From Motilibacter rhizosphaerae (lineage in GTDB: Bacteria > Actinomycetota > Actinomycetes > Motilibacterales > Motilibacteraceae), in NCBI RefSeq assembly GCF_004216915.1, contig NZ_SGXD01000002.1:124001-188000 (forward strand): a DNA stretch of 64,000 bases, read 5' to 3'. Positions 45,947 through 48,492 of this stretch are shown in pieces. A model generated the notes under the pieces. It was not told where the DNA came from. It searched no databases and worked only from the letters and a program-made list of their open reading frames with translations. Within the stretch, counting starts at the first letter, position 1; each line of letters begins with the position of its first letter. The position numbers were made by a program, and so were the translations under genes.

Positions 45947-46180
45947 ATGACCGTTCCGGACGAGCGACCTGCGGGCACCGACGCGGATGCCGACGAGGTC
46001 GTGGTACCGGCCGTCCCCGGCCCCGCCTCCGGGGCGGGCGGAGGCAACCCGGCACCGTTCGCGTTCGAGGGCGACGCCCTCGAGCAGCGCGACCACCCGG
46101 AGCGCGAGGCGCACGCGAGCGGCGAGCGCGAGCCGGGCGCCAGCGACGGGCCCGAGGGCGGCTTCGCCGCCCCCGTGTAG
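45947..46180 (+). CDS. 77-residue acidic protein with SGEREPG...GGF.APV C-terminal tag
   Basis: ATG 45947 follows GAGGAGG by six bases. The product is hydrophilic, rich in Asp/Glu/Pro/Gly and ends ASGEREPGASDGPEGGFAAP-V. Apart from two substitutions, the last 20 residues recur at the end of the 46269 gene. Probably disordered, with a recognition tag. A stress-type promoter precedes it. No known family. Confidence 0.65.
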   Translation: MTVPDERPAGTDADADEVVVPAVPGPASGAGGGNPAPFAFEGDALEQRDHPEREAHASGEREPGASDGPEGGFAAPV

Positions 46181-46268: not shown

Positions 46269-46496
46269 ATGAGCATCCCCACCGGCCCCGGCAGCAGCGC
46301 GGACGACGACGCGGGCATCGTGCCCGTGCTCCCGGCTCCCACCTCGACCCCGGCCATGGCCACCAACCCCGGCTTCCTCGCTGCAGACGCCGAGGGGGCC
46401 GACGGCGCCGGTCCCGAGGACGAGGCGCAGGCGAGCGGAGAGCGCGAGCCCGGCGGCAGCGACGGGCCCGAAGGCGGCTTCACCGCCCCCGTGTAG
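46269..46496 (+). CDS. 75-residue acidic paralog with the same C-terminal tag
   Basis: ATG 46269 follows AGGAGGAG. MSIPTGPGSSADDDAGIVPV opens a disordered, acidic protein that ends ASGEREPGGSDGPEGGFTAP-V, matching the upstream gene at the C-terminus while the rest differs. It is probably co-transcribed with it. The conserved tail suggests a shared binding partner. Confidence 0.65.
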   Translation: MSIPTGPGSSADDDAGIVPVLPAPTSTPAMATNPGFLAADAEGADGAGPEDEAQASGEREPGGSDGPEGGFTAPV

Positions 46497-46528: not shown

Positions 46529-47020
46529 TCAGAACCGCACGCTGCGGGCGACGGCGAGCAGCCTCCGGTCCCCGGCGGCGGACGCGTACCCCTGGACCAG
46601 GACGACCTCCCGCCGACCGAGCACGAGGTAGTAGCGGAGCCCGTTGTCCCCGTCGTCGACGCGGTACGCCGTGCCCGCCGGCACGTGCACGCGCCGCACC
46701 ACCGGGCGCTCGATGCCGAACTCCTCCTCGAAGTGCGCCAGCGGGCGGGAGGTCCAGCGCACCTCCTGGACGTCGATCGCCGAGCGGCCGTGGACGCTGG
46801 CCTCGTCGCCCGTCGGCGACAGGATCGTGTAGGCCCCCCGGCGCGGCAGCACCATGTCGGTGCCGCCGGTGCGGGCGACGTGCCAGCCGGCGGGGCGGGA
46901 GATGACGGCGTCGCCGACGCGTGCCCGCGCGGAGGACGCGGAGGCGGGGGCGGCGAGCGCCGGGATGACGGCGGAGCAGACGGCGGCGGTGGTGACGGCG
47001 GCGGTGCGCAGGTTCCTCAT
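46529..47020 (-). CDS. Secreted protein, candidate sigma-factor target
   Basis: This 163-residue protein has a cleavable signal peptide (MRNLRTAAVTTAAVCSAVIP... ASA). The mature part (from about residue 30, RARVGDAVISRPAGWHV) has a mixed beta/alpha pattern, with conserved-looking GTAYRVDDGDNGLRYYLVL. Function unknown. It is divergent from the SigE-family sigma gene and has the same promoter layout on the opposite strand. Confidence 0.75.
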   Translation of the reverse strand: MRNLRTAAVTTAAVCSAVIPALAAPASASSARARVGDAVISRPAGWHVARTGGTDMVLPRRGAYTILSPTGDEASVHGRSAIDVQEVRWTSRPLAHFEEEFGIERPVVRRVHVPAGTAYRVDDGDNGLRYYLVLGRREVVLVQGYASAAGDRRLLAVARSVRF

Positions 47021-47028
47021 GCCCCTCG

Positions 47029-47055
47029 TACGCGGTGGCGCGGCGCGGAGGTTGC
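47029..47055 (-). promoter_or_regulatory. ECF-type promoter of secreted protein gene
   Basis: Minus strand GCAACC (47055-47050), 15 bases, CGCGTA (47034-47029), then eight bases to ATG 47020. Matches the divergent promoter of the sigma gene element for element. Confidence 0.6.
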
Positions 47056-47081
47056 CTGCCGCCGGAGGACGACACGACGAC

Positions 47082-47108
47082 GCAACCCCGAGGAGGACGC
47101 AGCGCGTA
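47082..47108 (+). promoter_or_regulatory. ECF-type promoter of sigma gene
   Basis: GCAACC (47082-47087), 15 bases, CGCGTA (47103-47108), then eight bases to GTG 47117. This predicts a leaderless sigma transcript and autoregulation. GAGGAGG at 47090-47096 would instead serve ATG 47108, with a long gap. Confidence 0.55.
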
Positions 47109-47116
47109 TGGAGGGC

Positions 47117-47635
47117 GTGGAGCACGTGGAGCGCGGGTCCGCGCCGCCGTTCGCCGAGTTCGTCGGCGCGCGCTCGGCCGCGCTCCTGCGCAGTGCCTGG
47201 TTGCTCACCGGCGACGAGCAGCGCAGCGAGGACCTCCTGCAGACCGCGCTGGCGAAGGTCTGGACCCGGTGGGACTCGCTGGGCGCAGACCCGGAGCCCT
47301 ACGTCCGCCGCGTGATGTACACGACCTTCGTCTCCTGGTGGCGCCGCAAGTGGCGCGACGAGGTCCCGTCGGACGTGGTGCCGGAGGTTCCCGTCGCGGG
47401 CGACGCGGCGGACGCCGCCACGACGCGCGAGGTCGTGCGCGAGGCCCTCCGCCAGCTGCCGCGGCGGCAGCGGGCGGTCGTCGTGCTGCGCTTCTTCGAG
47501 GACCTCAGCGAGCTGCAGACCGCCGAGCTGCTCGGGATCTCCCCGGGGACCGTCAAGAGCACCACGTCGCGTGCGCTCACCAAGCTGCGCGACGTGCCGG
47601 CGCTCGCCGACCTCGTCGAGGTGACCGCCGCATGA
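47117..47635 (+). CDS. SigE-family RNA polymerase sigma factor (ECF-like)
   Basis: This small sigma-70 factor (172 residues from GTG 47117; 175 if ATG 47108 is used) has region 2 (PFAEFVGARSAALLRSAWLL, then LLQTALAKVWTRWDSLG) and region 4 (LPRRQRAVVVLRFFEDLSE, LLGISPGTVKSTTSRALTKL). It recruits polymerase to a small regulon. The GTG is chosen because the promoter spacing equals that of the divergent secreted-protein gene. No classical zinc anti-sigma follows; the coupled downstream gene encodes a single-span membrane protein. Confidence 0.92.
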   Translation: MEHVERGSAPPFAEFVGARSAALLRSAWLLTGDEQRSEDLLQTALAKVWTRWDSLGADPEPYVRRVMYTTFVSWWRRKWRDEVPSDVVPEVPVAGDAADAATTREVVREALRQLPRRQRAVVVLRFFEDLSELQTAELLGISPGTVKSTTSRALTKLRDVPALADLVEVTAA

Positions 47636-48492
47636 GCCCCCGAGACCTGCGCGACCTGCTCCACGACGTCGACCCGCCGGTGCCCGTGAACCCGCAGCGG
47701 GCGCAGCAGGCGGAGCGCCGCGCGCGGCTGCGGCGCACGCGCCAGCGGGCCGGCGCCGCGGCAGCACTGGCGGCGGTGGTGGTCGCCGTGCCGCTCGGGC
47801 TGCGCTCCGCCCTGCCCGGGGGCCGGACCGTGCCCGCGCCCGCCGCCACGGCGCCGGCGACGCCGACTCCCACCCCCTCGGCGGCCCCCACCCCCTCGGC
47901 GGCACCGACGGCCGGCACGCGGGTCAACCCCTTCACCGATGCCCGGGTCAGCGCCCGCGGCGCCCAGCTGACGCGCGCGGTGGCGCTGCGCACCGCGGAC
48001 CTGCCTGGCTGGCAGGTGTCGGCGACCGGCGGCGGCCCGGGCAGCGCCGACGACTCCACGCAGGGGGTCCCCGTCGGCGCGGTCTCGCACGGGCTGCGCG
48101 GGGCCGAGCGGGCGTACGCGGCGCAGGCCTCCCGCGCCGGAGCGTCCCTCGTCGAGCTGGTGACCCGCCTGCCGACGACGGCCGCGGCGGCCACGGCGTA
48201 CGCGACGAGCAGCAGGCGCGACCGCGGCCAGCCGGGGGCGCGTGCGGTCAGCGGGCTGGGGACGACTCAGCGCCCCGAGCAGGTCGTCGCGCTGCCCGCC
48301 GATGAGGCCGGAGTCCGGCACTGGGTGGGCTGGGCCCAGGTGGGGCGCTCGGTGGTCTACCTGGAGCTGCAGGACCCGGCGGCGAGCGCCGGCGTGGACA
48401 GGTGGTTCGCCCGCCTGCTCCACCGCGCGGCTGAGCGCGCCGGCGGGCTGCCGGCGAGCGGGAGCGTCCCGGAGTTCCCCGGAGCCGGCTAG
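47632..48492 (+). CDS. Sigma-linked single-span membrane protein
   Basis: Coupled to the sigma gene by ATGA, this 286-residue protein has a cytoplasmic N-terminus of about 45 residues ([20 protein letters not shown] and an Arg-rich segment), one transmembrane helix (about 46-62), a Pro/Thr/Ala/Ser linker with repeated [13 protein letters not shown], and an extracytoplasmic domain. The topology fits an anti-sigma or signal-sensing partner, although no zinc anti-sigma motif is seen. Its TAG stop shares a CTAG with hemQ. Confidence 0.8.

What the first reader, a model, noticed from the sequence alone, without database searches (positions are those of the whole stretch)
47029..47119. Mirror-image sigma promoters set a leaderless sigma start and a direct target
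Both strands carry GCAACC-N15-CGCGTA followed by exactly eight bases and then a start codon: GTG 47117 for the SigE-family sigma gene, ATG 47020 for the secreted protein. Two unrelated genes sharing all three spacings by chance is unlikely. It implies the factor reads its own promoter and that of the divergent secreted protein, and that the sigma protein starts at GTG 47117.
Basis: partly seen in the sequence, partly recalled or inferred. Interest (0 to 1): 0.62.

Follow-up and report, generated by a model that had tools for sequence, protein, structure and literature searches.

The report
Self-reading leaderless sigma-factor promoter pair
A bacterial sigma factor gene and its back-to-back neighbour, a secreted protein gene, carry the same promoter at exactly the distance that would put the start of each RNA on the start codon, so the factor probably switches on both itself and its neighbour without any untranslated leader.

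Summary
Confirmed and strengthened. GCAACC-N15-CGCGTA, then exactly 8 bases, then a start codon, stands on both strands. In the 4.3 Mb genome the exact motif occurs three times: these two, and once more, again 8 bases before the ATG of a protein with a signal-peptide-like start. None of 11 one-mismatch sites has a start codon there. Of 57 SigE-family (TIGR02983) sigma genes in the five held genomes of this bacterial family, 17 have AACC 31-34 nt before an in-frame start, 11 of them at exactly 33. In mapped corynebacterial ECF promoters the first A of GGAAC is at -33, so RNA should start on the start codon: GTG 47117 for sigma, ATG 47020 for the secreted protein. A competing in-frame ATG, 47108, overlaps the -10 element, so a transcript from this promoter cannot contain it. 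Autoregulation and control of the neighbour are well supported but inferred: no transcript is mapped, and the secreted protein has no homologue in 392 other genomes, so conservation of that target could not be tested. ECF autoregulation and leaderless genes are both known; this is a new instance combining them.

The parts
47082..47108 (+). Promoter of the sigma/P0003 operon: -35 GCAACC 47082-47087, -10 CGTA 47105-47108 (spacer 17 between GCAACC and CGTA)
   Evidence: exact match, 3 in the genome; same promoter type before sigma relatives
47029..47055 (-). Same promoter on the other strand, facing the secreted protein gene: -35 GCAACC 47055-47050, -10 CGTA 47032-47029
   Evidence: exact match; AACC-to-start distance 33
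47117..47635 (+). SigE-family ECF sigma factor, proposed leaderless start GTG 47117 (172 aa)
   Evidence: TIGR02983, 187.8 bits against cut-off 141.55 (with the longer ATG 47108 version); start inferred from promoter geometry
47108..47110 (+). Competing in-frame ATG that overlaps the -10 element; usable only from a transcript starting further upstream
47632..48492 (+). P0003, co-directional partner overlapping the sigma stop (ATGA); one likely membrane helix; probable anti-sigma factor
   Evidence: N-terminal part resembles the gene beside a SigE-family sigma in G003; anti-sigma role inferred
46529..47020 (-). P0002, predicted secreted protein of 163 aa, proposed leaderless start ATG 47020; no known family
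   Evidence: signal peptide read by eye

Best explanation
The 96 bases between the two start codons hold two copies of one ECF-type promoter, back to back. The SigE-family sigma factor, once free of its membrane partner P0003, directs RNA polymerase to GCAACC (-35) and CGTA (-10) on both strands. Transcription starts on the first base of the start codon in each case, so both mRNAs are leaderless: sigma begins at GTG 47117, the secreted protein at ATG 47020. The result is positive feedback on the sigma/P0003 operon together with induction of the neighbouring secreted protein; a third exact site suggests a very small regulon with a second secreted protein. Shown: the motif, its rarity in the genome, its geometry, its recurrence before homologous sigma genes. 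Inferred: the transcript starts, which sigma reads the sites, and that P0003 is the anti-sigma factor.
For: 3 exact sites in 4.3 Mb, each exactly 8 bases before a plausible start codon; 0 of 11 one-mismatch sites with a start there. AACC-to-start distance in 57 SigE-family genes of this bacterial family: 11 at 33 nt, 17 at 31-34, against 31 occurrences spread over distances 45-90 (hand count for the last number); 0 at 33 for ACAC, ACCA, CAAC, CACA, CCAA and GGTT. GGAAC has its C at -31 in C. glutamicum ECF promoters (PMC10012870, passages), so the first A is at -33. Of the 11 own SigE-family genes of at least 117 bits only this one has GCAACC-N17-CGTA. A second mirrored pair with matching elements stands beside a SigE-family sigma gene in G002 (L158).
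Against: No transcript data. An in-frame ATG (47108) with a purine-rich stretch 11 nt before it could be used from an upstream promoter. No homologue of P0002 was found, so its promoter cannot be tested by conservation; the genus relative G001 lacks it. Only 17 of 57 family genes have the leaderless distance, 17 have the motif at other distances and 23 have no AACC in range. The gene at the third site appears to change reading frame after about 38 codons, so it may be broken or misassembled. Matched opposite-strand promoters are rare: 2 of 53 sigma promoters in 108 loci.
Confidence: 0.75

Rival explanations
1. The promoters are real and leaderless but are read by another SigE-family paralogue, or by several with overlapping specificity: cross-regulation instead of autoregulation.
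For: 36 matches to TIGR02983 in the genome, nine over the cut-off; several own paralogues have similar promoters; L014 also has GCAACC and CGTA, at a different spacing.
Against: Among the 11 own genes examined only this one carries GCAACC-N17-CGTA at its own start, and ECF factors are commonly autoregulated (PMC8103513, passages).
Confidence: 0.13
2. The sigma protein starts at ATG 47108, translated with the help of AGGAGG 47091-47096 from a transcript that begins upstream of the motif.
For: ATG is in frame and a purine-rich stretch precedes it; two-promoter ECF genes with different starts exist (sigR, PMC4921905, passages).
Against: Its A lies in the -10 element, so the predicted transcript cannot hold it; the 11-nt spacing is long; the homologous leaderless-type genes use GTG at the place of GTG 47117 in 15 of 17 cases. 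The sigma-70 consensus scan of 46900-47300 found no promoter, but expects none by chance either and covers no other promoter type.
Confidence: 0.1
3. The two inverted copies are halves of an operator bound by a dimeric regulator, not promoters.
For: They form an interrupted inverted repeat.
Against: Single copies occur before many sigma relatives and at the third site, always pointing at the gene; the spacing matches ECF promoters.
Confidence: 0.02
4. Chance resemblance in a GC-rich stretch.
For: The hexamers were chosen after seeing both sites.
Against: 2 of 20,000 shuffles for equal spacings; genome-wide and family-wide recurrence.
Confidence: 0.01

Closest known systems
Autoregulated ECF sigma operons (general pattern: AAC at -35, CGT at -10, co-transcribed anti-sigma factor; PMC8103513, passages)
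   Same: promoter elements, sigma gene followed by an overlapping membrane-protein gene, predicted positive feedback
   Different: promoter fused to the start codon, and a matched copy driving the divergent gene; anti-sigma role untested
sigJ of Streptomyces coelicolor, listed as a documented leaderless gene likely read by a sigma factor other than sigma-70 (PMC3160421, passages and reference title)
   Same: an ECF sigma gene with a leaderless transcript from an alternative sigma factor
   Different: its reference describes control by another sigma factor (sigma H), not by itself
sigE of M. tuberculosis and sigR of S. coelicolor (PMC4921905, passages)
   Same: sigEp1 makes a leaderless mRNA; sigR has two promoters that give proteins with different starts, one promoter self-read
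   Different: there the self-read promoter is the upstream one; here the self-read promoter is predicted to be the leaderless one
Leaderless genes of Actinobacteria in general (PMC3160421, abstract and passages; PMC3898074, passages)
   Same: start of RNA on the start codon, about a fifth of genes
   Different: those were found through housekeeping-type TANNNT signals (PMC3160421); here the promoter is ECF-type

Membership tests
SigE-family ECF sigma factor (TIGR02983) | score over the curated cut-off of the family model | tested here: met
   187.8 bits against 141.55
SigE-family ECF sigma factor (TIGR02983) | sigma regions 2 and 4 present | tested here: met
   Sigma70_r2 27.0 bits (cut-off 24) and Sigma70_r4_2 64.6 bits (cut-off 25.7)
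Autoregulated ECF sigma operon | AAC/CGT promoter directly upstream of the sigma gene | tested here: met
Autoregulated ECF sigma operon | the sigma factor itself drives that promoter | not testable with these tools
   needs a deletion strain or in vitro transcription
Autoregulated ECF sigma operon | co-transcribed anti-sigma factor | tested here: inconclusive
   P0003 overlaps the sigma stop and its N-terminal part resembles one gene beside a SigE-family sigma in G003 (1 of 4 genomes), but it matches no anti-sigma family
Leaderless gene | promoter placed so that +1 coincides with the start codon | tested here: met
   first A of AACC 33 nt before GTG 47117 and ATG 47020, against -33 in C. glutamicum
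Leaderless gene | transcript 5' end within 5 nt of the start codon (definition used in PMC3898074) | not testable with these tools
   no RNA data held

The most novel reading that the evidence does not exclude
In this bacterial family many SigE-family sigma genes, and the one or two genes each controls, have promoter and start codon fused, so that every transcript of such a mini-regulon is leaderless: each sigma runs a private, leader-free circuit (sigma, membrane partner, secreted proteins) whose output depends on leaderless translation and would be favoured when the cell translates leaderless mRNAs.
Probability: 0.35. Interest if true: 0.6.

Novelty: new member of a known kind. Interest (0 to 1): 0.42.

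Why it matters
It fixes a start codon that automatic annotation could misplace, gives an uncharacterised sigma factor a proposed promoter and a testable regulon of three transcripts, and offers a simple rule (first A of AACC 33 nt before the start codon) for recognising leaderless, probably self-activated sigma genes in these actinobacteria. The five genomes of the family hold 57 such sigma genes of at least 117 bits.

Tried and rejected
AACC-N16/17-CGTC genome-wide: 280 sites against 69 for the reversed control; the excess looks like codon rhythm (AAC and GTC in frame), only the first places are listed, and I read none of those loci. One search printed upstream regions without turning minus-strand loci, so its rows for those loci are wrong; replace it. 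Single-sequence AlphaFold models of P0002 and P0003 have mean pLDDT 39.3 and 41.9, too poor for a fold search; none was made. The Pfam REV hit of P0003 (18.5 bits, cut-off 22) is below the cut-off and was rejected. Opposite-strand motifs of any AACC-N16/17-CGT(A/C/G) or GCAT type beside all 76 sigma genes held for the five genomes: 4 genes, about what I would expect by chance from a rough estimate of my own, so no general claim about divergent targets is made.

Rows left out or judged: a further site, L095, has a GTG 32 nt after the first A opening a 124-codon frame that I did not identify; it is not counted among the four. In the 57-gene count, L013 (33 nt) and L157 (32 nt) have such a distance only at a start more than 60 nt upstream of the conserved domain and are not counted among the 17. 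For the tree I used 33 of the 34 genes with a motif in range; L013 was dropped because its motif looked like coding sequence. The wider comparison used 51 loci; I left out L034 (the query itself), L047, L049 and L052 (same bacterial family) and L089-L093 (distant matches).

Full report
OBSERVATION. The sequence reads as described. On the plus strand GCAACC occupies 47082-47087, CGCGTA 47103-47108, eight bases follow, and GTG is at 47117-47119. On the minus strand GCAACC occupies 47055-47050, CGCGTA 47034-47029, eight bases follow, and ATG is at 47020-47018. Within the window only these two are exact; allowing two mismatches gives 9 hits where shuffles give 8.97. Shuffling the 96 bases between the start codons gave two non-overlapping opposite-strand copies of any shared 6-N(13-19)-6 pattern in 29 of 20,000 cases, and with equal end distances in 2 of 20,000.

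GENOME. The window lies in a genome of 4,315,149 bases (G000). The exact motif occurs three times in it, the reversed control once. The third site (L003; C2:329912-329938, minus strand) is followed by eight bases, GGAGGGGC, and an ATG that opens MKRSLPLSLAALAVAALAPAAPASAA, which looks like a signal peptide (by eye). So all three exact sites have a plausible start codon after exactly eight bases, two of them before probable secreted proteins. The frame of the third gene appears to change after about 38 codons, by mutation or assembly error. Of the 11 one-mismatch sites none has a start codon at that place. The looser AACC-N16/17-CGTA has 21 sites (reversed control 9). All 21 were read: four have a recognisable gene whose start codon lies 33 nt after the first A, namely the two here, the third exact site, and a second SigE-family sigma gene (L007/L114), where the spacer is one shorter and the tail one longer. 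A fifth, L095, has a GTG at 32 nt with an unidentified 124-codon frame.

SIGMA GENE AND PARTNER. The sigma protein scores 187.8 bits against TIGR02983 (cut-off 141.55) and has regions 2 and 4. Its stop codon overlaps the start of P0003 (ATGA, 47632-47635), a protein with a short N-terminus, one likely membrane helix and a Pro/Thr/Ala-rich stretch (by eye). No family matches P0003 above cut-off. Its N-terminal part resembles the gene just downstream of a SigE-family sigma in G003 (41% over residues 5-99, E 9.9e-5; 1 of 4 genomes), and 7 of the 10 other own paralogues examined have a frame that looks like such a membrane partner overlapping or next to their stop (by eye; L006, L007 and L009 do not). 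It is the likely anti-sigma factor; that is inference.

FAMILY EVIDENCE. The genome has 36 matches to TIGR02983, nine over the cut-off. I examined every gene of at least 117 bits in the five held genomes of this bacterial family: 57 genes, 11, 9, 17, 4 and 16 in G000 to G004. AACC lies 20-90 nt before an in-frame start near the conserved domain 69 times; ACAC, ACCA, CACA, CCAA and GGTT do so 15, 22, 5, 8 and 12 times (CAAC, 65, overlaps AACC and is no independent control). The distance peaks at 33 nt with 11; 31-34 nt together hold 17 genes; distances 45-90 hold 31 occurrences, about 0.7 each (hand count). None of the other words occurs at 33. The 19 weaker-scoring sigma genes held (16 of G000, 3 of G003) have AACC twice, never at 31-34. 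By type, 17 of 57 look leaderless (15 with GTG, 2 with ATG), 17 have the motif at other distances, and 23 have none in range. Some pairs are close relatives (L120/L121, 85%), so these are not 17 independent events. In a tree of 33 of the 34 genes with a motif the label needs 6 changes where shuffled labels need 11.3 on average; the sigma of this window falls in a fork of 10 rows, 9 of them leaderless-type (support 84/81, not among the strong ones). In 51 sigma genes from other actinobacterial families 43 have AACC within 110 nt of a start and 7 have it at 31-34: the promoter type is shared, the leaderless distance is less common there. That sample is biased towards close matches and holds many Actinomadura.

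WHY 33 MEANS LEADERLESS. In C. glutamicum the consensus GGAAC of mapped ECF promoters has its C at -31 (PMC10012870, passages), so the first A is at -33. If the same holds here, +1 is the first base of the start codon. This is geometry, not a mapped end.

START CODON. The in-frame ATG at 47108 competes. Its A is the last base of the -10 element, so a transcript from this promoter cannot contain it; it would need a promoter further upstream. AGGAGG at 47091-47096 stands 11 nt before it, which is long for a ribosome-binding site (general knowledge). I favour GTG 47117.

DIVERGENT TARGET. The secreted protein P0002 has no family and no homologue in 97 relatives or in 392 other genomes drawn from the class (the sets overlap, and only the best candidates of each genome were scored), so conservation of its promoter could not be tested. 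A second mirrored pair was seen: L158 (G002) has GCAACC-N16-CGTC before a SigE-family sigma gene and the same on the other strand facing a 222-codon gene with a membrane or signal segment, both further from their starts. Overall 2 of 53 sigma promoters in 108 loci have a matched opposite copy and the two control regions have none: uncommon, and the numbers are small.

SPECIFICITY. The own-promoter variants of the paralogues differ in the two bases before AACC, in the last base of CGTN and in the spacer. Among the 11 own genes examined GCAACC-N17-CGTA precedes only this sigma gene, which makes this sigma the best candidate reader of all three sites. It is not proof.

LITERATURE. In print are ECF autoregulation through AAC/CGT promoters (PMC8103513, passages), leaderless genes at about a fifth of actinobacterial genes (PMC3160421, abstract and passages), a documented leaderless ECF sigma gene, sigJ (same passages), and a leaderless M. 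tuberculosis sigE transcript (PMC4921905, passages). In S. coelicolor leaderless transcripts are over-represented among those not dependent on the main sigma factor HrdB (PMC7947799, passages), which fits. On the other side, the same paper finds leaderless transcripts under-represented among genes responding to cell-wall antibiotics. Seven searches of the held library listed no title or abstract opening that reports a self-read leaderless promoter in this sigma family; the main ECF classification paper is not held, so this absence is weak.

VERDICT. It combines two known things, ECF autoregulation and leaderless transcripts, with a small predicted regulon that can be tested directly.

Noticed in passing
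L003 1501-1527 and upstream; G000 C2:329912-329938, minus strand: Third exact promoter copy, before a gene with a signal-peptide-like start whose frame appears to change after about 38 codons; on the other side lies a gene that looks like a luciferase-like oxidoreductase (by eye).
   Followed up: partly
L158 (genome G002): Second mirrored pair of matching ECF promoters (GCAACC-N16-CGTC) between a SigE-family sigma gene and a divergent membrane or secreted protein gene.
   Followed up: partly
L131, L133, L150: Three leaderless-type sigma genes of this bacterial family have GCAT where the others have CGTN, perhaps a different -10 specificity.
   Followed up: no
L014 (G000 C1:889061-889519): A sigma paralogue with GCAACC and CGTA at an odd spacing (N19 from AACC, then 6) that still has AACC exactly 33 nt before its ATG.
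   Followed up: no
window 45947-46180 and 46269-46496, plus strand: Two tandem small frames of 77 and 75 codons share the C-terminal motif SGEREPGxSDGPEGGFxAPV; possibly duplicated precursor peptides.
   Followed up: no
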